Below are positions 25,051 to 37,770 of a stretch of 64,000 nucleotides of DNA, one piece after another. Origin of the DNA: Gracilariopsis chorda (lineage: Eukaryota > Rhodophyta > Florideophyceae > Gracilariales > Gracilariaceae); contig NBIV01000241.1 in assembly GCA_003194525.1 (NCBI GenBank), forward strand, positions 53,948 through 117,947, given 5' to 3'. Under the pieces are notes generated by a model, which saw only the letters and a list, made by a program, of their open reading frames with translations, ran no database searches and had not been told where the DNA came from. Numbering within the stretch: position 1 is the stretch's first letter; each line of letters opens with the position of its first letter. Made by a program: the position numbers and the translations under genes.

Positions 25051-26449
25051 GGACTGGGGACGCCCAGGCAGACTGAGCTGGCTCAATAAACCTCTTCTCC
25101 AGCATGGATTCCACATGTTCCTATTCGATATCTCTGGACCGGGGCCCTGGCCGAGAAGCCAGTTGTGAAATAGGCCTTGTGCCTGGCTGAACGTCAATGT
25201 GATGTTCCACAGCAGCAACCTGTCCAATATTTCTACTCCACATGGAAGATTACTTCAGCAAGAGCGGGCATAAGCGAGACCGAATTTGCTCTGGTGGGTG
25301 GGAAAGGTCCACATCTGGTAACGGTTCCGCTCGCTCTTCCGTACTTGCAGTCGTCTGTTCCGAAAAGGGCGGTTGCTCTTCGTCCGGAATCGCCGGGTAC
25401 TCCTTGTCCGGTAACGATATCCGCAGGACATCGACTGTCGATATGTGAGTATATCTTAACACTGAAGGGTGTGGCAGCGCCATAGCTACCACTTGATGCT
25501 TGTGCAACGGGCACTCATGAGATTTAGGACAACCTAAGAGAACCTTCAAAGGTTTGTTGTGTTCGACTTGAGCGATGCTGTTGGCGACGAATATTCCATG
25601 GGTCTCATATATCGTGGCGTTGGGCTGCGTGGCAATGAGTCCATGTTGTTTTGTGCTAGCCGGAATTCATGCCTGGAATTTGGGTGGTATCAACACAGGA
25701 CTACAGACGTGAATCTCCAGGTAAACTCTATCGAATACGGGGCCATACTCCTGTGATGGGGGGAAGGGTACCAAGTCCCATGCCCTTTGCAGGGGCTTTC
25801 GCACTATGGGTACGGTGGACCCGTCGTCCATCTCCATTTTACGACTTTGTGGCCTGATGGATTCCCCAAACTTGTCAAAATAGTCACATCTAAGCACCAC
25901 TGGCGCCGCAAACGTGATACACACGATGAATGGCTGCATGAAAACATGATGACCCAGCTTCACCACTAGCCGAATTCTACTAATTGGCTTCAAAAGCATC
26001 TTGTTTGCATCCCGTATGTCCGATTATTGCACTGTTTCAACTCGAAGGCGTTCGTCCGGACGTAATTCGTAAACCCGAATGAAGCTAGGCCCGGCGCCTG
26101 TATCTAACACTGCGAGACGTCGCACCAGGAGATTTCGTGAGGAAACATCGTTAGAGTATACCTTGTAGTTGTGCTTTGCCATTACCAGAACGTAGCTAGT
26201 TCTCCTCCTCGGGCACGTGTATCGTTTACAAGGACTTTGTAGGGCACAGTCAAACTGTCCTTGGGTTAGGACATTCGGATTACTCTGCCGTAAGAGTATC
26301 TTAGGCCTCCATATTGCGGAGCAAGGAGTGTCGTTCTCCTCGACCGGGATGACCAGAACCGCCCGTGCCGACTCCCAAGCGGCTCCTCCCTCTCGTTGCC
26401 CGAATGCAGTTGGTTCTGGGCTCCCGCAGGCGCGGAAAATTCCTGACAT
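25051..26449 (-). pseudogene. Element B protease and start of reverse transcriptase, decayed
   Basis: The aspartic protease active site is intact at the residue level (VLDTGAGPSFIR, about 26120-26085). It is followed by the DYFDKFGESIR segment and a linker that leads into the reverse transcriptase (near 25100). Frames switch several times. The same modules are less damaged in element B2 at 46.9-48.3 kb, which was used for comparison. Confidence 0.75.
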
Positions 26450-26502
26450 CCAGGCTCTTGGACCTGGGTGGGCTCAACCGACATAGCAGTCTTCTGTTCT
26501 TC

Positions 26503-28334
26503 TTAACGGACGGCACCAGTAGCATACCACGTGCTGGTCTTCCAGGAGGACGTAGCGGGTACACGATTGCGGTTTTCTGCAACTAAGCCCTCATAGTTCA
26601 ATTTAATCTTGTATATATCCCTCGTGGGCAAAGTACACTCCACAGATAAGTGGTGCCGACCATAAAAGTTGTAACAGATCAGCCTGTTTCTATGGGGGCG
26701 TTTTAGAGCGGAATTGCGGGGTACCGTACGGGTGTCAACCCATCCGGGTTTCTTAATCGCGAAACCTCCGGGCAGCGGAACCATCCCAGCCCTGTACTGA
26801 CCTCGACGGGCCTCCATGGTCATTAACGTGCCCTCCTGGGTCGCCTCGGTGGTTGGGAGGTCGGCAGTCGGAATGGAACTGTCTTGGTCGTCCAGAAAAT
26901 GCATCGCCTCGTGGTGCGAAGAACTCCCTTTTAGACTTGATATCGAGGACTCCCTCGAGTCTTCTGGAGATTAGACCAGTAATACTTTGCCGGACCCAGG
27001 CTGAAATGGTCGCTTGAGGCCATGCGTTTTGATGTCGTATGTACCCAGGTAACGGATACGGGTACGCCCACGGGCACTATTGGTGTCGGTTTCGGCTTGT
27101 GCGAATTTCGCCAATTCCAAAGAGCTCATATGACTATGCCGGTCTCCGTGTTTAGCCACTAAGGACTTGATAGTCGGATCAATTCCGTCCCCAAACAGGA
27201 TTCTCTTCTCGTCTATCGAGTGGACATTACAATACCGCTTGGAGGCACTGTTGAGCCTCAAGCTTTACTCGACTTCATCTTCATCAGGTTTCTGAACAAT
27301 ACCCGTGAGTGCCATGTTAGCTGCTCGAATCGCGTTGGAGGTGGCGTAGCAGTAGGTATTGTACTGCTTCTGGCAAATATGTGACTCCACCTTCGTCCAC
27401 GGTTAATGAACCACAAATAGCACGGTACTGTCCTAAGGCAAACCCAGATAGAAAATGTGTTAAAGCCCCATAGGCTTGAGGTTCAATCATCTACAGTGCG
27501 TCCGCCTCCGCAGCAAAGCGTGCCAGGAAGTTGAACAAAAGAATGGGGTCCTTTCCATTTACAACCAAGTCATCCATGGCTACTTTCATCCTCCTGATAT
27601 GATCTTTCACTTTGCCTGTACGGCAACCAGTCCGTGGAAGTTTCCCGATTTTCAATCGGTACAGGCGATAGTTCATGATTTTCTCGTAACGAGAGTTTGC
27701 GCGTGGAAGAGGCTTAAGTCCTCGACAGGCAGTCTTTTCTTCCTTATCAAATACGAAGCAACGTTCTTCCTTCTTCCTCTCGACCTCCGAGTTTCCTCCT
27801 CACTGGAACTCGAACTTTCATCAGATCATGTTTCACTGTTGGAGTCGTCCAAGCTAGAGCTGTCGTTCTCTGACTCTTGACAATCCAAATATTCCTTCCA
27901 GGCGGACTTTCGGGACTTTTTAGAGCGCGTGGGGTGTCCCGACGTCACTTTTTTCGAGCGCACCTCCATGAAATCGGGATATAATGCCTGCACTTCAGGC
28001 TCTGCAGTGGCCGATTGAGCGACTGCGTTTTCTAACCGTTCAAGGCGGGTGTTTACACGGGTGAGGACTTCCCCTGTGGTGACCGGCACTGTATTTATTG
28101 CCCCTGCAGCAGCACCTTGAGCTTCCATCAGTTGAGTCAAGCCTTCACGGACCGTCCGAACACAATCAGCGATCTGAGTATCGACATTTCCTCTCGTTCT
28201 GACAATCATTTGCTCTCTTCGTAGTTTGTCTGAAGACAGGTCCATCGTTGTAATCCGACCTTTCACTACTTCCAGACGGATCTTCTGCGTCACAGATTCT
28301 GCACGGAGAAGCTGTAATTCAGCGCGTAAGTCAT
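26503..28334 (-). pseudogene. Element B gag, C-terminal portion
   Basis: This contains the bulk of gag: a helical, charged region (about 28334-27830), a Ser/Glu/Asp-rich stretch (about 27900-27830), the capsid-like part and a zinc knuckle reading CYNFYGRHHLSVEC. In B2 the knuckle is a canonical CX2CX4HX4C; here the second cysteine is phenylalanine. The N-terminal gag portion lies on the other side of the nested MULE (34557-34767), and the frame is continuous if the MULE and one target copy are removed. Confidence 0.8.
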
Positions 28335-28344
28335 CCTCGATGGA
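28335..28344. repeat. Left 10-bp target duplication of the MULE
   Basis: CCTCGATGGA directly abuts the left terminal inverted repeat and is repeated exactly at 34557-34566. MULEs typically duplicate 9-11 bases. Confidence 0.95.
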
Positions 28345-28720
28345 GGCCAGGGGATAATCTACACAGCGTAGCCGGCGTAAAAAATTGATTGATAAGGAAC
28401 AGCTCAGCACGACCTCTCCATAAAACTGACCCAGCTCAATGACCCGCATATGCACATTCTGCTGCGGCCAATCGCAGCCCTCTATTGTCCCAGTAGACCA
28501 AAAAAACAAAAATGAGCAACTCAAACCAGCAACAACGTACCCCTAAGTGTTCATCCGTCTTTGATCCCTGATCGCATACCTGAAGACACATTCGCACACC
28601 ATCTCTCCCGCCGTCGCACCTGAAGACACATTTGCACTGTTTCTCTCCCGCCGTCGATGCTAGATCTCTAGCAATACAATCACGCACTACTCCCACTCCC
28701 ACCTCCTTCATCCTATTCAG
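28345..28720 (+). repeat. Left terminal inverted repeat of the MULE
   Basis: It aligns with the reverse complement of about 34205-34556 with only scattered differences. Shared blocks include ACACAGCGTAGCCGGCG and ACCCGCATATGCACATTCTG. Unlike the right copy, it contains a tandem duplication of about 39 bases (28578-28616 and 28618-28656). The transposon's promoter should lie in or next to this repeat. Confidence 0.93.
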
Positions 28721-28817
28721 ATCTCATTTCCATCCATTACTAGCGTCTCCGACTACGCTATACTCATACTCTGATTACTATAGCTTCACTTTTTTTTTAT
28801 GTCTCGCCTCAAATGCC

Positions 28818-29644
28818 ATGGGAGACCTCAGTGCGCATGTTGGTAAGTACACACAAGACACACTCCTAAGAAACACGTCTCATTCTAACAAAATATTTGC
28901 TCCAATTCTGCTTTCGATACAGCCTCCAATTTGAAGTTCGGAACGCAGCTTGATATATTAATGACAAGCGATATCGATAAACGGGTAAGCAAGATCTGTA
29001 GATCTTTTTATATAAATGTAGAGAGAAACACAGGACTGCGAATCACAACTTCCTTACCTCGGTTTAAGTTGATTCATGATCATGTTTACTCTATCGTAGA
29101 TGCAGAGCAGAAAGAATTACATCCTGTTTCTCTCGTTCACAGCTCAAAAATGCGATCTTATCTTTGCAGTGACCCCATCACAAGCGCGATTATGGACATG
29201 AAACCGAAGCCTGGTGTATGTTTCTGTCCGTGCGATACAGGTTTTGCGCTGTCTGGCTTCTCGAAGCGGCAAAAGAAGTTATCTAACGAGGAAGAAAAAG
29301 CATTTTGGTCCATGGTGAAGAAGTCGTTTTCGGTTGACGTATCAGAGCACTCTGGTGAGGTTCTCACGGTTATCGTTCCCTTGAACCTGCGCAATGAACA
29401 TTGGGGTATACTACTAGGAACGCGATATATGGATGTTGATGGAAACAAGGTAGAGAAGCCCACGGTCTACTTTGGGGATAGTCTACGTTTCAAGTGTCCA
29501 CCACCAGTCTTGAAGCTTTTTAAGAAAGCATATGACTACAGCATTCTTCATGGAAACAGTAAGGCTATCGCTTCACGGAAAAATGTAGTCTTGGACGTCA
29601 AGAATTACTACCGCCAAGCGGACAGTTACAGCTGTGGATGCTAA
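28818..29644 (+). pseudogene. MULE frame, part 1: Ulp1/SENP-like (C48) cysteine protease
   Basis: Ulp1-family enzymes cleave SUMO or related tags and occur in some plant and fungal MULEs. A short first exon (28818-28842) begins MGDLSAHV and is joined to 28923 across an 80-nt intron (donor GTAAGT, acceptor ACAG); the splice keeps the frame. All catalytic elements are visible: histidine in NEHWGILL, aspartate in VYFGDSL, glutamine in RQADSYS and cysteine in SCGC. The frame then meets TAA (29642), two codons after the glycine that follows the nucleophile, but stays open beyond it in the same frame (VISFFTEFASDRG), as expected for the rest of the domain. This is therefore a nonsense mutation rather than the natural end. 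Confidence 0.85.
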
Positions 29645-30958
29645 GTAATCTCATTCTTTACTGAGTTTGCGTCTGATCGAGGATGCGCTCCGGACCAAAC
29701 CTATGCACAGGGGTATAGTTCTGAGCTCTCCTAGCGATATCGTTGGATGTCGATAAGGAGCCGGTTGGTACAAACTTTGATGGCAGGTCAGTACTTTGCC
29801 ACTGAAACAGTGACGGAAACAATGGTCAGCGAGTACCGAATTCAACACCGAGAGCACATGTTTGAGGCTAGGGATCGAGGTTTGTCGCGAATAAAAGAAA
29901 TTCAGAGTCAGACAAGCCAGCGAGGCCAAAAACTAAGTCCAGGGTCCGAGGCGGTGTATAAAGACGCCACCGTCCGAGAAGAGAAGGTGCAGGAGTCCAA
30001 CAGTCCGAGAAAAGCGAATGGGGGCACTTGTGAGCGCATATAAATGGTAGAACAGAGGGACGATTCTACAGAATTGGGGACACTGGAATCTCTTGGAAGC
30101 GAGTCGGGCACTGGGAATGGTAAATTCGACAGCGACGAGGTTTACGCCGAGACATCTGACGATATATGTATAAAAATAAGAGAGGAGAAACGGTCGAGAC
30201 TGGAAGCTCGTCTTGAGAAAATTGAGCTGCTGAATAGAGGTCTCTCCACGGTTTCTATGGGCCGTGTACCTCGAAAGATACGTTTCGAAGATAGCTACAA
30301 TGTAGCTTCTTCCGTCGTTCAAGACCTACTTCTCACCGTTTTGAGTAGTTTGGATAACGGTTGTGTCCCGCAGCTACACCTGCCAAATGAAGTGGATCAT
30401 GTGGACGACTTAGTAGGAATCCTAAAGTCACTGGCCACAAAGAATGGTTGGATGTATGGTGTCCACTACTTTCGAACAGTTTGCAGGAGAGTTAAGGGAA
30501 ACGATAGGGCTGCTACAGGAAGGATGCGCTGTATGAATTCGAATTGTCCTTCGAACATCTCTTTCCACCTCATTAGACGTACAAAGAAGTGGGAGATATC
30601 TTATTGTCTGAATCACAACCATGACCCTCTATCGAGCATCAGAAAGAAGATTGACAAGCGAATTGAGATTATTAGGCGATCTCTTATCGCGCGCTATAGG
30701 ACTTGGAGAAAGGATGGAGTACCTGGGATGAATGAACTGCATTGGAAGATGTTGGAAAACCGTTTGCTGCCGAGGACAGGGTTTTTACCAGAAAGACCTT
30801 TTCGTTGGGATAATGGACGACTGGAAAGAGTGTCTAATGGAAAACCTCTTGAACCAGGTTCAAACAAACGTTTGACGTCTAAAATAGCAGTAAAGCCACT
30901 TTCTTTATCCCATGCCAACCGCTTTCATCCGGACTCTGAGCAATTCACATCGCTCTAG
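29645..30958 (+). pseudogene. MULE frame, part 2: first FLYWCH/FAR1-like zinc finger region
   Basis: The frame continues through stops at 29732 (TAG) and 30041 (TAA) to a stop at 30956 (TAG). A zinc-finger-like module reads MRCMNSNCPSNISF, then YCLNHNHDPLS, giving a C-C-H-H pattern of the FLYWCH/FAR1 DNA-binding type found before MULE transposase domains. It is preceded by a helical stretch and followed by a basic segment. A similar module is repeated in the next part, which suggests an internal duplication. Confidence 0.75.
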
Positions 30959-33892
30959 AATACCAATACAGCCTCTGCGCATAGAAAGCTCGCGACTGGA
31001 GAAGGTGGAGAAGATGCTATCGGGCTCGGTGTAGGAGACGTGAGAGAGAATGATGACAATGCTCTCATTGTAGGAGACGTAGTGGACCAGGTACATAATC
31101 GAGTCATTGTAGAGGACGTATCTGGCTCCAAAATTACCTCTGCTGTTTTGAAGAATGGGAAGGAGCCTTTCGAGATTGACAGAGGATCGCCTCCAGACGA
31201 CAGACCTGGGGTTTTGGAGAAGCGTGAAGAACGATATCCGGAAACTTCACTTGAGAACTTTGAGTTGAGTGTAGCAATGGCCTCTGGAGTCTCTATCGAT
31301 AAGGCTGCCATGGAGGAGGATGGGTCGCTTTCCACAAGCAGTATTGAATTGGGTGATGAACGAAGCTCCGAAGGCGGTGAAGATCCAATTGAGCTTATAG
31401 AACGCTTTTTGGACGACGATGAGGAGCTCCCTCTCGACTTATTTCACGTCCCTATGGTGGACTTGGAACGCATTATTAGTGCTACTGGCCAGATTAAGAT
31501 TCTGGAAACTGATGGGGAGGATGGCAAACAGGATGACGACAACAGTTCGACTGTTGAGTACTATCAGAACGAGGATATAGAAGAGTGCTTTAAGGCTGCT
31601 GTTCTCGCATTTCTTCAATCGCTTCCTTTGAATTCCCCTGGCCATGATGTTCTGAAGGAAGTTCAACATATTGCCGACTGTATGGGATTCTACATATTTG
31701 TGAGAACTTCTATCTATGTTGGTTTTAAGGAGAAGGAAAGGAAAAGTAACGGAGTAGCCGGAGATCAGCGAGTTCTACAAAAAAGCATTCTGAAGTGCCA
31801 GAAGTACAACGATAAGAAAGACCGTTGTTCTTTTTCGATGAAGATCAAGACGGTTTCAGATAGTACTCGTGGACGAAGCTACGTCGCTGATCTCACAGCG
31901 GCGAGGCATACACACCCGTCAACCCAACACGGAGCTGTGAAGTATTTAGCTCCGAAAATTAGATCTGAAGCAATTCACATGACAGGAAAGCCACACATGT
32001 CTTTCCAGGACACCATTCGGTACCTCGAAGACAAGTACAAGAAGCCGATCAATCCTATATCTGCACGAAAGCAACTAGGATATGCGGGCTCAGTGAGTAA
32101 CCCGAAAGACTTGGAGTGCATGCGGTTGAGCGAGATTCTTATTGAGCTCAATAGAGATGATCCAAGAAACAAATTCTTCTTTAAGTGTGATTCCGCTGGA
32201 CGAATGAAGCTGGCTTGCTGGTCATTGAAAGAGTGGTTGGAGGACTACGAAAATTTTAGGATAGTACCCAGTGTATCCGTTGATTGCAAAGCCATAGCAA
32301 ATCGATATGGTTATCCACTCTTCACTGTGAATGGAAGAGCAAACGATGGATTCACCTTAGCTTTCTTTATGGGCTTCATTTCAGGAGAAACGACGGCTGA
32401 CTTCACTGAGGTGCTGTCCTGCTTTAGGTCGATCGTTCCAATGTCACCGGCAATGATAACCATGGACCAAATCATTCCATGCACCAACGCTGTGGAGCAG
32501 GTGTTTGATAGGTCATTCGTGTCTTTAGATGAATGGCATCTTAACCAGAACCAAATGCGCAACGTGACATCATGCTGCGCCCATATAAAACGCCAGTCTT
32601 GGTGTGACGATATGTCGAGGGACTTGTTTGCTATGCAAAGATCACGAACGGTACAAAACTTCTTTAGACGCAGGGAGTCTTTCCAAAGAAAGTACTTTGA
32701 ACATTTGGGGGAAAGACCTCCAGTTTGGTATCGATACCTTTACTTGAAGAAGCCCCACATGGTCGTGAGCTGCTTTAAAGACCTAGCCGTCCCTAAGAGG
32801 TACCTTTTCCAAGGTACTGGCTACACGGAGGCATCCAACTTTGGGTACAAGGCCTATATTCTGTCTAAGAAGGTTCCCTTCTCTCATATTCCCTACGAAA
32901 TTCGTCGACAAACGTTGAAAAGAAACGACAGGCGACAGGAAGCACGCACAAAGTCAGTATCTTCTTTGAGCAGTAGATATTGATCTCTACGAGATTGCCA
33001 GCTACCGTTACCTGACGCAGTTCTGAACTCCCTTCTACTAGATTACAAGACGTACTCTCTCACGAAGTTCAAAGAGCTGAGCATCGAAAGCGCAAAATAC
33101 TTTGCAGTTATCTCAACATCTGTGATCGAGTACGACACCAAGACCTGTTCTGGACTGGTTTTAGAACACGGGAGCTCAATTGCTCCAGTAGCGCGATTTG
33201 AACTGCAACCGCGAAGACCTCCGACCTCTTAATCCACGATTTTGCAGCCACAGTCTACACCAGTTGTCGTCTTGTTCGCAACTACGGTTACTCCAACTGA
33301 TAATGGCCCAGAGAGCAATGTTCTCGCATTATGCAGCTGTCGCATGTCCATAACAATGGGGTTTCCGTGTAGACACATTGTGAGATGTGCATATGTATAC
33401 CCAGAAGAACTTCTCAGACTACCAGATCTAAGTCACGTTTTGGACGACTGCATCCCCATTCACCAACTTTTTGATCCCTACTGGAAAGCATCTGATCGCG
33501 TAATTTCTGTTCAACATAAAAGCGAAGCACGAAAGCAGGCAGGAGTGTATAAAGAAGAAGAGTTAGAAAAGCTGCTGCGCACATCCGCTACAAAAGAGAC
33601 GGATATTGATTTCGATGACATAGGGTGCAAAAAAGAAGACGCGGAGGTGCAGAACTACGTGACGAGAGCAGCTGGAATCGCGCTGTTTTATCAATGCCAC
33701 AAACTTGTATCAAGCATGACTATGAACGCGGTGGAGCGCGTCCACCAAATCTTGGAAAAAGTCCGTGACGTGTTATCTCAAGGATCGGTGCCACCACTTT
33801 CTTTAGTCTCAGACTTAGAGAGCCTTCCTGGTTTGCAAAGAAACCTCGTTGTGACTTCCGCTTCTGGAAATAAGGAACACACAGCGATCTAA
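30959..33892 (+). pseudogene. MULE frame, part 3: second finger, DDE transposase and SWIM finger
   Basis: An acidic stretch (about 31290-31570) leads to a second FLYWCH/FAR1-like finger (KCQKYNDKKDRCSFSM, then RHTHPST, about 31790-31925). The MULE transposase core follows: first aspartate in SVDCKAIANRYGYPL, second in ITMDQIIPCTNAVEQVF, then the conserved DEWHLNQNQMRN block. Stops lie at 32981 (TGA) and 33230 (TAA). After them a SWIM zinc finger is intact (CSCRMSITMGFPCRHIVR, 33331-33384). The part ends at TAA 33890. Cut-and-paste transposition is the inferred function; this copy cannot make the full protein. Confidence 0.9.
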
Positions 33893-33916
33893 CCACCAAA
33901 TAAAGGATATGTTAGA

Positions 33917-34105
33917 ATGAAACGCAGAATCAAAGGATACACGGAGAGATTCAACTCGAAGAAAAAACGTACATCTTCTTCATCTTGGGAGCTACGACAC
34001 GTATCTCAGAATTCATCGCAACGGCAATCGAGTCTCTCTTCTTCTGATATAGACAGAGCACAGCGGAAGGCTCTGAGCATAGTTGAAAGCATTTCAAGAG
34101 GTTAG
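33917..34105 (+). pseudogene. MULE frame, part 4: basic C-terminal tail
   Basis: After the TAA at 33890 the same frame stays open to TAG at 34103. It encodes a lysine/arginine/serine-rich tail (MKRRIKGYTERFNSKKKR). Staying in frame, with nuclear-localisation-like composition, suggests it was once the C terminus of the fused protein. It could instead be a short separate frame. Confidence 0.5.
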
Positions 34106-34204
34106 GAGGTGTTAGTAGTTGAATCAAAATAAATTCTTGTTTCAAGAGCCTCCAAGTAACGTACGAGAATGACATTGGACGATTAAAGGCGCATGAAGCG
34201 TGCA

Positions 34205-34556
34205 AGAAACGCGGGGATCTGGATAGAATGAAGGAGATGGGAGTAGTGCGTGACCGTGGTGCTAGAGATCTGGCATCGACGGCGGGAGAGATGGTGTGCG
34301 AATGTGTGTTCAGGTGCGCGATCAAGGATCAAAGACGGATGAACACTTGGCGCTTAGGGGTACGTTGTTGCTGGTTTGATTTGCTCATTTTTGTTTTATT
34401 GGTCTACTGGGACAATAGAGGGCTGTTATTGGCCGCAGCAGAATGTGCATATGCGGGTCATTGAGCTGGGTCAGTTTTTATGGAGAGCTCGTGCTGAGCT
34501 GTTCCTTTTCAATCAATTTTTTACGCCGGCTACGCTGTGTAGATTATCCCCTGGCC
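34205..34556 (-). repeat. Right terminal inverted repeat of the MULE
   Basis: This is the reverse complement of the left repeat. The outer end reads GTAGATTATCCCCTGGCC on the + strand and is followed at once by the target duplication. It lacks the 39-base internal duplication of the left copy and has a short extra segment near 34347. Confidence 0.93.
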
Positions 34557-34566
34557 CCTCGATGGA
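34557..34566. repeat. Right 10-bp target duplication of the MULE
   Basis: CCTCGATGGA is identical to 28335-28344. Confidence 0.95.
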
Positions 34567-35836: not shown

Positions 35837-37770
35837 AAAATCCCCGGGCTCTTAGAAGAGGATGAAGATAGTGATATTTAGGAAAAAGAACTACATGTGC
35901 TAAGCCTAGCCGAAGAAAAAGAAGACCTTTAATCGGCAGTACTTGCGACAAAGGTCAAGCATCTCTTGGAAAGCGCGCAAACTCAGCTCTCTGGAACACT
36001 GATAGACTTGAAGGCCGTTGCTTGGTCTTTGGAATACTTTGGACCTGCTGATGTCCCAGCCAGGCATTCTTTCGAGCTGAAGGATCGAGAACCATTTTCG
36101 TTTCGGATAAGACTTCTCCCACTGCTACATAATGGTGTAGTAAGAAAAGAGATTGATAAAATGCTTCGGGTAGGAATCGTCACACCAGCAAGCTCTGCAT
36201 GCTATTTTCCTATTGTAATCGTAACAAAGAAAAATGGAAGCCCGAGATTTTTGCGTAAACTAAGGTGCATTGAATGCCAAGATGAAGTCCAATCGTTGGC
36301 CATTACCACGCAAAGAAGAAGTGTTTGATGACCTTCGTCGATCTTCACTATTCACAACTGTAGATTTGTTTTCAGGATATTGAAAAGCGAAGATAGCCGA
36401 AGAGTGTAAATATATGTCGAATTTCATCTGCAGATTTGGTAAATTCAAGTTCGAAGTTATACTATTTGGATTGATGAATGCACCTGCTACCTTTCAGAGA
36501 ATGATGGAAGCCGTGTTGAAAGAGGTATCCTTCGTTTCTGTCTATCTGAATCACGTCGTGATCTACTCTGATAATATAAAGAATCACCTGATGCATTGCG
36601 AAAAAGTTCTCCGCAGAATTGCTTTGCATTGGTTGAAGATTAAGCTGGCTAATTGTACGTTTGCGCAGCCTCAAGTGAAGCGCTTGGGACATATCATCGA
36701 TAAGATGGTAATTGTGACGGAACCAGAAAAGATCAAAGTTATACAGGAAGCTCCACGTCCAGCCTTCGCAACAGAACTAAAAAGTGTCTTTGGACTGGCC
36801 AGTTACTATCGACGGTTTATACCCAGGGTTTGCCGAAGCATCCGCTGCCCTGCAAGAGGCCACGTCACCAAAGAAAAAGTGGCTCTAGACTCCAGAAATG
36901 CAAGGAGGCTTCCTATATCGCACGGCGAAGTTGGCGAAACCCACTGTTCTGGGATTTCTAAAATCTGATGAACCCTTCGTAGTTGAAACTGATGCACCCA
37001 GTGTGTCGCTAGGGGCTGTTATTTCTCAGAAAAGAGATGGAAAACTACATCCAGTACAGTTTGCTAGCCGTACGATGACAGCAGCAGAGAAAGACTATTC
37101 AGCATGCCAACGCGAAGCATTAGTAGTCCTCTTTGTATTGATAATGTTTCGTTTTTATTTGCTGTCCTCTCTTCCATTCACATTCATTACTGATCCCCAG
37201 GCCTTGCATTATGCGTTTAAGAAAAGAGATAATCATGGGAGACTTGCAAGATGGATGGATTTTCTTTCAGAGTATGAGTTTGAGATAAAGTACAGACCGG
37301 GGGCAAGTAACCATGTTGCTCACTACTTGTCACGTATAGAACTATCTGCAGAACAGGAAACCGATGAAGTCGTAATTGCAGTTTCCTCAGAAGAATCAAT
37401 GTTCGAAGACTTCGAACAGTATCTTGTTGATACAGGTAACTACATCTTGGGATTGACTTTGAAGGAAAAGGATCCCCTCGAACGCCCTAAAATTAAAAAA
37501 AAAGCTAAAAAGTATATGGTGTGGAATAGCAGGTTCTTCCGCAGGATGAAGAAAGGGCTTCTGGTGATCTCAAGAATAAGAACCCGACTGCAGGTCTTAA
37601 GGAGTTTTCATGACGATATTGGACACTGTGATATTGGTGGTACAGAGAAAGTCGTCTTAGAACGCTATTGGTGGCGAAGAGTATACCGGCAGGTTGCCGA
37701 GTATGTAAGCAGCAGCTGTGATGGGCTCCAGTTGGCAAAAGATATCCCGACGTATCGAACTATGCTCTGA
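35837..37770 (+). pseudogene. Element A reverse transcriptase and RNase H, decayed
   Basis: Coding sequence resumes after element B with an acidic stretch containing two in-frame stops. It then reads AVAWSLEYFGPADVPARHSFEL (split here: AVAWSLEYF, GPADVPARHSFEL), matching C. The reverse transcriptase is in a second frame (36414-36968) and reads YLNHVVIYSD where YIDDVFIFSR stands in C, so the catalytic aspartates are gone. RNase H follows in a third frame (from 36898) with VETDAPSVSLGAV and GRLARWMDFLSEYEF, and the integrase zinc-binding region lies near 37610-37740. Confidence 0.85.

What the first reader, a model, noticed from the sequence alone, without database searches (positions are those of the whole stretch)
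28818..34105. One 1,735-codon MULE frame: Ulp1 protease, two FLYWCH-like fingers, DDE transposase, SWIM
Frame arithmetic shows that all pieces between 28923 and 34105 share one reading frame, with exon 1 spliced in phase. The ancestral gene was probably a single fusion of a SUMO-protease-like domain with a MULE transposase carrying a duplicated N-terminal finger. Ulp1 genes are known as separate or read-through passengers of some plant MULEs; a full fusion with a double finger in an alga would be a distinct architecture and is my best candidate for a new element family.
Basis: partly seen in the sequence, partly recalled or inferred. Interest (0 to 1): 0.75.

Follow-up and report, generated by a model that had tools for sequence, protein, structure and literature searches.

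The report
SUMO-protease-fused jumping gene in red alga
The stretch is a worn-out copy of a DNA transposon in a red-algal genome whose transposase is encoded as one very long protein that begins with a SUMO-cutting-enzyme-like domain; unbroken copies elsewhere in the same genome show that the fusion is real and has been maintained.

Summary
Window 28345-34556 is one Mutator-like element (MULE) with long terminal inverted repeats and a perfect 10-bp target-site duplication. Its pieces share one frame: the window copy aligns over 1,738 codons without an indel to two copies in the same genome (L031, L032) that carry one uninterrupted 1,738-codon frame, TIRs at least 99% identical and perfect 10-bp TSDs. 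The window's seven in-frame stops are decay. Pfam finds Ulp1/C48 (just over cut-off), MULE and SWIM in that frame. Two finger-like C..C..H.H patterns are conserved, but Pfam finds neither and nothing shows a duplication. Between sub-clades the Ulp1 part is constrained (dN/dS 0.21; DDE 0.15; linkers 0.58-0.73). The pairing is widespread here: 60 of 111 listed MULE hits have a same-strand Ulp1 hit upstream, 9 in one open frame, from four divergent families. A 1,587-aa public protein has the same order. Ulp1-bearing Mutator transposases are in print for hydra, lancelet and plants, so this is a new variant, not a new kind. Most likely mechanism: cut-and-paste transposase whose N-terminal peptidase removes SUMO or a relative from the transposase or nearby proteins (inferred). 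Structure prediction failed; activity is untested.

The parts
28335..28344 (.). left 10-bp target-site duplication
   Evidence: identical to 34557-34566; joined flanks match three sites without the element, C211, C136, C213, at 81-84%
28345..28723 (.). left terminal inverted repeat, with a ~40-bp direct duplication at 28578-28656
   Evidence: inverted-repeat arms I1-I5 and direct repeat D1
28818..28842 (+). exon 1: 8 codons from ATG plus one base
   Evidence: ATG in 10 of 10 copies that cover it
28843..28922 (+). intron, GTAAGT...ACAG
   Evidence: donor GT in 10 of 10, acceptor AG in 12 of 14 copies that cover them; splicing itself not observed
28923..34105 (+). exon 2: one frame with 7 nonsense codons in this copy; final stop 34103-34105
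   Evidence: gapless alignment to the open 1,738-codon frame of L031
28955..29848 (+). Ulp1/C48-like domain (codons 23-320 of the L031 frame); H 29399, D 29477, Q 29615, C 29633
   Evidence: PF02902 over its cut-off in L031, L037, L054, P0002; the four residues invariant in A10; the window piece alone gave no Pfam hit
30530..30622 (+). finger 1, C-x4-C-x22-H-x-H
   Evidence: corresponding C..C..H.H (H.C in P0002) in L037, L054, P0003, P0002; no Pfam hit
31388..31432 (+). conserved hydrophobic-acidic motif, possible SUMO-interacting motif
   Evidence: recognisable by eye in L031, L029, P0001, P0002 and P0003; the SIM label is recalled, not tested
31796..31915 (+). finger 2, C-x9-C-x26-H-x-H
   Evidence: corresponding residues in L037, L029, P0001, P0002; no Pfam hit
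31979..33148 (+). MULE DDE transposase region; proposed triad D 32282, D 32465, E 32828
   Evidence: PF10551 2.6e-6 in the window, 3.6e-7 in L031; triad placed from recalled MULE motifs; its spacing (61, 121) is near but not equal to that of Muta1 (69, 136; PMC5225508 passages)
33302..33382 (+). SWIM zinc finger, CxC...CxH
   Evidence: PF04434 1.7e-4 in the window, 4e-5 in L031
34216..34556 (.). right terminal inverted repeat
34557..34566 (.). right 10-bp target-site duplication

Best explanation
The feature is a decayed copy of a red-algal MULE whose only gene (in intact copies) encodes one protein of about 1,735 aa (about 197 kDa): an N-terminal Ulp1/C48-type peptidase, finger 1, an acidic linker, finger 2, a DDE transposase and a SWIM finger. 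SHOWN: TIRs, 10-bp TSDs, intact single frames in two sister copies, selective constraint on the peptidase part, and the same order in several families. INFERRED: one spliced mRNA is translated as one protein; the fingers bind the long TIRs; the DDE core cuts and pastes the element; the peptidase removes SUMO, or a related modifier, from the transposase itself or from chromatin and repair proteins at the element, so that transposition escapes SUMO-dependent silencing or control. Because protease and DNA-binding transposase are one chain, the protease is delivered to the element.
For: Two copies with one open 1,738-codon frame, TIRs 345/345 identical and 99.1% identical, perfect 10-bp TSDs. Window copy collinear without indels. 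Ulp1 dN/dS 0.209 (95% bootstrap 0.13-0.31) between clades A and B; DDE 0.152 (0.09-0.25); linkers 0.729 (0.47-1.15) and 0.575 (0.37-0.91). Window against L035, two decayed copies: 1.07, as for neutral decay. All 22 contigs with a family-1 DDE row (75% identity or more) also have a family-1 Ulp1 row (the two lists compared by reading; one search scored 40 of 63 candidates). 60 of 111 listed MULE hits have a same-strand Ulp1 hit within 8 kb upstream, 1 pair has it downstream and 1 on the opposite strand; in 9 both lie in one open frame of 1,302-1,914 codons, judged by equal frame length and phase. P0002 is collinear in both halves. H, D, Q, C invariant over L031, L037, L054, P0004, P0002. The source names P0004 'Papain-like cysteine peptidase'.
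Against: C48 scores are only just over the cut-off (21.7-26.4 bits against 20.7); the whole L031 frame scored under it (18.2); in the genome search with PF02902 only one family-1 locus (C244) reached E 0.001; P0003 and P0004 gave no Pfam hit, and the annotated P0003 lacks the segment with the catalytic Asp. No match to solved structures by sequence, single or profile. Structure models failed (mean pLDDT 37.8 and 34.9). No transcript of this family was seen; the one transcriptome relative, P0001, is an 873-aa 'complete' ORF without Ulp1. 51 of 111 MULE hits showed no Ulp1 upstream (both lists were capped). Finger 1 is not clearly constrained (0.642, 0.34-1.38). Substrate and activity are untested.
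Confidence: 0.8

Rival explanations
1. Polyprotein: the Ulp1-like domain cuts the chain itself, releasing protease, finger-1 protein and transposase.
For: Very long chain with long, weakly constrained linkers; P0001 is a stand-alone finger2-DDE-SWIM protein.
Against: The L031 frame has di-glycines only at codons 378, 706 and 829 and by eye none is kept in the other families. Ulp1-type cutting after di-glycine is recalled knowledge.
Confidence: 0.1
2. Two genes: a protease passenger beside a transposase gene, joined in one frame by chance or by recent read-through, as in plant ULP-carrying MULEs.
For: ULP domains in plant MULEs occur as passengers in both orientations (PMC2528002 passages). P0004 is annotated as a 382-aa protein alone and P0001 as a transposase alone.
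Against: 9 loci from four families hold both domains in one open frame; 60 same-strand upstream against 1 opposite; the linkers stay in phase in L031, L032, the window, L035 and L037.
Confidence: 0.05
3. The Ulp1-like domain is a dead protease kept as a binding domain for a ubiquitin-like protein.
For: Weak profile scores; in family 1 catalytic residues are lost in some decayed copies.
Against: H, D, Q and C invariant over five sequences down to 25% identity. In family-1 copies with data, window included: H 16 of 18, D 19 of 20, Q 15 of 20, C 16 of 20; the losses lie in L034, L043, L044, L047-L051, none of them an intact copy.
Confidence: 0.07

Closest known systems
Ulp1-bearing Mutator transposons of hydra, lancelet, Arabidopsis, maize, rice and melon (named in PMC2836005, passages read)
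   Same: Ulp1/C48 domain in elements with a Mutator-type transposase; a figure legend there speaks of Ulp1 domains in 'Mutator TPases'
   Different: Position and strand of the domain in those proteins were not given in the passages I read; none named there is from a red alga
KAONASHI (KIU) MULEs of Arabidopsis (PMC2528002 and PMC13317346, passages read)
   Same: MULE with a ULP protease domain that is said to be strongly conserved
   Different: They lack TIRs and carry ULP in reverse orientation to the transposase, as one of three genes; here long TIRs, same strand, fused N-terminally to the transposase
Rhodophyta MULE-Cc groups 36 and 38 (Dupeyron et al. 2019, PMC6446971, passages read)
   Same: Red-algal MULEs with TIRs of 192-640 bp, one ORF, SWIM; group 36 is noted to have 'various inserts, potentially host derived'
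   Different: The words peptidase, ULP and protease occur 0 times in the text held; the relation was not tested because those sequences are not in the tools
Ginger1 transposons (PMC2836005, passages read)
   Same: Transposase fused to an Ulp1 protease domain
   Different: Gypsy-integrase-like core, and Ulp1 at the C terminus

Membership tests
Mutator-like elements (MULE) | MULE-type DDE transposase domain (PF10551) | tested here: met
   28.2 bits in the window, 31 bits in L031, cut-off 27.6
Mutator-like elements (MULE) | 8-11 bp target-site duplication | tested here: met
   of 7 copies with both ends: perfect 10 bp in window, L031 and L032; imperfect in L035, L037 and L040; weak in L044 (flanks printed, compared by eye)
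Mutator-like elements (MULE) | TIRs, often of hundreds of bp | tested here: met
   about 340-380 bp in the window, 345 bp in L031 and L032
Mutator-like elements (MULE) | CH motif and W between second D and E (as described in PMC5225508 passages) | tested here: inconclusive
   LDEWH lies between them in L031 and L029, that is D-x-x-H, not C-x-x-H; the W was not assigned
Ulp1/C48 peptidases | Profile match over the curated cut-off | tested here: met
   21.7, 26.4, 25.4, 22.8 bits against 20.7 in L031 (N-terminal piece), L037, L054, P0002; none for P0003, P0004 nor the truncated window piece
Ulp1/C48 peptidases | His-Asp-Gln-Cys catalytic set in order | tested here: met
   H171, D197, Q243, C249 invariant in A10; that these form the set is recalled; P0003 lacks the Asp segment
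Ulp1/C48 peptidases | Ulp1 fold | tested here: inconclusive
   model pLDDT 37.8, not usable
Ulp1/C48 peptidases | SUMO or ubiquitin-like isopeptidase activity | not testable with these tools
   needs a biochemical assay
KAONASHI (KIU) MULEs | non-TIR element with ULP in reverse orientation to the transposase | tested here: not met
   TIRs present and ULP on the same strand in one frame
FLYWCH / FAR1 fingers | Pfam match | tested here: not met
   no match up to E 10 for the four finger pieces given
FLYWCH / FAR1 fingers | C..C..H.H(C) zinc-ligand pattern | tested here: met
   kept in both fingers across the sequences aligned; a loose criterion, recalled
Ginger1 | Gypsy-type integrase core | tested here: not met
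   core is PF10551 MULE
Rhodophyta MULE-Cc (groups 36, 38) | monophyly of the transposase with those groups | not testable with these tools
   no Chondrus MULE sequences were available

The most novel reading that the evidence does not exclude
A large, old MULE lineage, widespread in this red-algal genome and present beyond it (Gracilaria domingensis P0003/P0004, and P0002 of unnamed origin), carries a deSUMOylating protease as a fixed part of the transposase. With a conserved SUMO-interacting-like motif before finger 2, the element would read and erase SUMO at its own insertion sites: a transposon-encoded, cis-acting counter-defence built into the transposase.
Probability: 0.2. Interest if true: 0.75.

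Novelty: new variant of a known kind. Interest (0 to 1): 0.5.

Why it matters
It has been suggested in print that Ulp1 and OTU proteases carried by transposons act in transposition (PMC2836005, passages read), but the plant cases I saw described are passengers or reversed genes. Here protease and transposase are one chain, intact copies exist in one sequenced genome, and the protease is about as constrained as the catalytic core. That makes the question testable: does transposition need SUMO removal? It also points to a red-algal element with two near-identical, structurally complete copies, a possible starting point for a genetic tool in that group.

Tried and rejected
Structure: both AlphaFold jobs (Ulp1 part, 9 sequences; finger1-to-DDE part, 9 sequences) gave mean pLDDT 37.8 and 34.9, so no fold search was run. 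PDB by sequence: the 335-aa query gave two matches at E 0.63 and 0.71, taken as chance; profile A10 gave none. The whole 1,738-aa frame against 5.8 billion proteins gave no hit among the 7,992 candidates scored; the transposase-half alignment then found P0001 and P0002, and the mixed alignment P0003 and P0004 among 7,991 scored. NCBIfam: nothing for 4 proteins. Transposase-half alignment in viral contigs and in prokaryote genome contigs, and the Ulp1 part in phage records: no relative. 'The second finger is a copy of the first': hhalign score 11.6, against a mean of 11.3 and maximum of 15.5 in 50 column shuffles, rejected as unproven. 'Natural stops separate the modules': rejected. Whether P0002 has a closer match in the window's own genome could not be tested. 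One anomaly kept in view: dS between clades A and B is higher in Ulp1 (0.445) than in DDE (0.221), which could mean past recombination between sub-families. Several copies are not independent: L040/L041 share their left flank and L045/L046 look alike.
Full report
WHAT IS THERE. Window 28345-34556 (6,212 bp) is an element with both ends: inverted-repeat arms at 28345-28723 and 34216-34556, flanked by a perfect 10-bp duplication at 28335-28344 and 34557-34566. The flanks joined over one duplication match three other places in the genome that lack the element, C211, C136 and C213, at 81-84% over 128-130 of 135 bases. A real insertion is shown.

THE FRAME. In the window the frame is broken by seven stops: 29642, 29732, 30041, 30956, 32981, 33230, 33890. 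Against L031 it aligns over 1,738 of 1,738 codons with no gap, at 94.9%. L031 (contig C33) and L032 (C41) each hold one uninterrupted frame of 1,738 codons, are 99.8% identical to each other over 6,184 bp, and have 345-bp TIRs that are 100% and 99.1% identical and perfect 10-bp TSDs. With exon 1 (28818-28842) spliced over a GT-AG intron the product is 1,735 aa. ATG and donor GT are present in 10 of 10 copies that cover them, the acceptor AG in 12 of 14 (lost in L034 and L050). Splicing itself was not observed.

THE REFUTATION TEST. Of the window's stops, that at 29642 occurs in 0 of 19 other copies with data, 29732 in 1 of 18 (L035), 30041 in 2 of 18 (L044, L049), 30956 in 0 of 20, 32981 in 1 of 21 (L051), 33230 in 0 of 20 and 33890 in 0 of 17 (22 other copies examined, L031-L052; those without data at a place are left out of its n; some copies are near-duplicates of each other). 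The window and L035 differ from each other with dN/dS 1.07, as expected for neutral decay.

DOMAINS. On the L031 frame Pfam finds MULE (31 bits, cut-off 27.6), SWIM (23.5, cut-off 19.6) and Peptidase_C48 (21.7 on the 335-aa N-terminal piece, cut-off 20.7; 18.2, under the cut-off, when the whole frame is scanned). In the window alone only MULE and SWIM are found, probably because a stop falls inside the C48 match. C48 is also over the cut-off in L037 (26.4), L054 (25.4) and P0002 (22.8), but not in the Gracilaria domingensis proteins P0003 and P0004, the second of which its source names 'Papain-like cysteine peptidase'. Searching the genome with PF02902 gave 18 hits: four strong ones (88-114 bits), likely ordinary host genes, and 14 weak ones (24.8-30.2 bits), several in frames that also hold MULE; only one family-1 locus (C244) was among them. 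H171, D197, Q243 and C249 are invariant over L031, L037, L054, P0004 and P0002; P0003 as annotated lacks the Asp segment. That these are the catalytic residues is recalled knowledge of Ulp1. Structure prediction failed, so the fold is not shown.

FINGERS. Two C..C..H.H patterns (C548/C553/H576/H578 and C970/C980/H1007/H1009) recur in the relatives aligned (H.C in finger 1 of P0002). Pfam finds nothing in the four pieces given. Comparison of the two finger profiles scores no better than shuffled columns. 'Two zinc-finger-like motifs' is justified; 'FLYWCH' and 'duplicated' are not shown.

SELECTION. Between clade A (L031) and clade B (L037), Nei-Gojobori dN/dS by module is: Ulp1 0.209 (bootstrap 0.13-0.31), linker 1 0.729 (0.47-1.15), finger 1 0.642 (0.34-1.38), linker 2 0.575 (0.37-0.91), finger 2 0.186 (0.07-0.41), DDE 0.152 (0.09-0.25), SWIM region 0.259 (0.13-0.52), C terminus 0.242 (0.14-0.42). 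L037 has four stops itself, so part of the divergence is decay and constraint is probably understated. The peptidase part was kept about as strictly as the catalytic core. Finger 1 was not clearly constrained. This is one pair of copies.

HOW GENERAL. Family 1: all 22 contigs with a DDE row of 75% identity or more (40 of 63 candidates scored) also have an Ulp1-region row (on C82 the two lie about 29 kb apart; C265 and C275 have an Ulp1 row only). Family 2 (C206, C14 and others; 40 copies scored of 84 candidates) has the same order, with 42-43% identity in Ulp1 and 48% in the transposase, and two loci with open frames of 1,914 codons that hold both domains. Genome-wide, 60 of 111 listed MULE hits have a same-strand Ulp1 hit within 8 kb upstream (median 2.7 kb), against 1 pair downstream and 1 on the other strand. 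In 39 of the 60 the two are in phase, and in 9 both report the same open-frame length in phase: C190 (1,789), C63 and C384 (1,702), C14 and C206 (1,914), C369 (1,528), C33 and C41 (1,738), C427 (1,302) (from the lists, which scored 150 of 156 and 108 of 270 candidates). Of these nine only C33, C41 and C427 were read as whole sequence here. The 51 MULE hits without Ulp1 may be fragments, diverged, missed by the cap, or truly without it.

OUTSIDE THIS GENOME. P0003 and P0004 are Gracilaria domingensis proteins with the Ulp1 part; P0003 runs on through finger 1 to the stretch before finger 2. The best matches of P0004 in the window's genome are about 50% identical, so this is another genome. P0002 (1,587 aa, ENA, one 5,599-bp contig, organism not named) aligns to L031 in two collinear blocks, residues 94-571 and 831-1694, and has C48, MULE and SWIM over their cut-offs. 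P0001 (EukProt transcript, 873 aa) has finger 2, DDE and SWIM but no Ulp1. Identity to L031 falls in parallel in both halves (Ulp1: family 2 42%, P0002 25%; transposase half: family 2 48%, P0002 32%), which fits co-descent of one fused gene. No tree was built.

HOST. Seven phycobilisome-linker matches over the cut-off on seven contigs, four of which (C12, C427, C144, C60) also carry MULE hits, and one phycobilisome match, point to a red alga; the nearest named proteins are from Gracilaria. The species is not known to me.

MECHANISM. Shown: mobility in the past (TIRs, TSDs, near-identical copies), one frame, constraint. Inferred: translation as one protein, zinc fingers on the TIRs, DDE cut-and-paste, removal of SUMO or a like modifier from the transposase or nearby proteins. 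A hydrophobic-acidic motif ahead of finger 2 (window 31388-31432) recurs by eye in the five sequences that cover it and resembles a SUMO-interacting motif (recalled); this is only an idea. Self-processing is less likely, since the three di-glycines of the frame are not kept in relatives by eye.

WHAT IS KNOWN. Passages of PMC2836005 state that Ulp1 occurs in Mutator transposons of hydra, lancelet and several plants, show it in 'Mutator TPases' in a figure legend, place it at the C terminus of Ginger1 transposases, and suggest a role in transposition. Passages of PMC2528002 and PMC13317346 describe plant ULP-carrying MULEs, with KAONASHI reversed and non-TIR. Passages of PMC6446971 list red-algal MULEs with one ORF and SWIM, one group with 'various inserts, potentially host derived'; the words peptidase, ULP and protease are absent there. 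Passages of PMC5225508 gave the MULE triad of Muta1. Term searches inside PMC13359780, PMC10398659 and PMC5735166 found nothing on Ulp1, and PMC6431247 mentions red-algal CACTA, not MULE. The ten library searches (listings seen) and these nine papers (passages only) showed no red-algal Ulp1-MULE. Most subscription papers and Repbase are not held, so absence from print is not established. A source recalled from memory, Babu et al. 2006 on WRKY-GCM1 fingers, is not held and may describe similar fusions.

VERDICT. Observation confirmed; interpretation partly supported; a new variant of a known kind, with a clear experimental handle.

Noticed in passing
27826-28524 (-), 26024-27261 (-) and right flank from 34567: The element sits in an antisense ORF that, with flanks joined, reads on across the insertion point; a neighbouring antisense ORF has a DTGAG motif like a retroelement protease. 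Probably a retroelement gag region (by eye, no family search).
   Followed up: partly
35966-37770 (+): Ty3/gypsy-like reverse-transcriptase and RNase-H-looking ORFs just right of the element (by eye).
   Followed up: no
28578-28656: A ~40-bp direct duplication inside the left TIR, which makes the left TIR longer than the right.
   Followed up: no
L037, L040, L044 (clade B copies): About 400-580 bp extra between the end of the frame and the right TIR, absent from clade A (from the coordinates). Content not examined.
   Followed up: no
window and L035: They share the stop at codon 282 (29732), as if both descend from an already broken copy moved by transposase supplied from elsewhere.
   Followed up: no
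G000 contigs C190, C83, C63, C384, C249: Further divergent MULE families with open frames of about 1,000-1,790 codons; Ulp1-like match 27-33% in C190, C63, C384, C249, and none listed for C83.
   Followed up: partly
L031 against L037, codons 23-320: Synonymous divergence in the Ulp1 part (0.445) is about twice that of the DDE part (0.221); possible past exchange of modules between sub-families.
   Followed up: no
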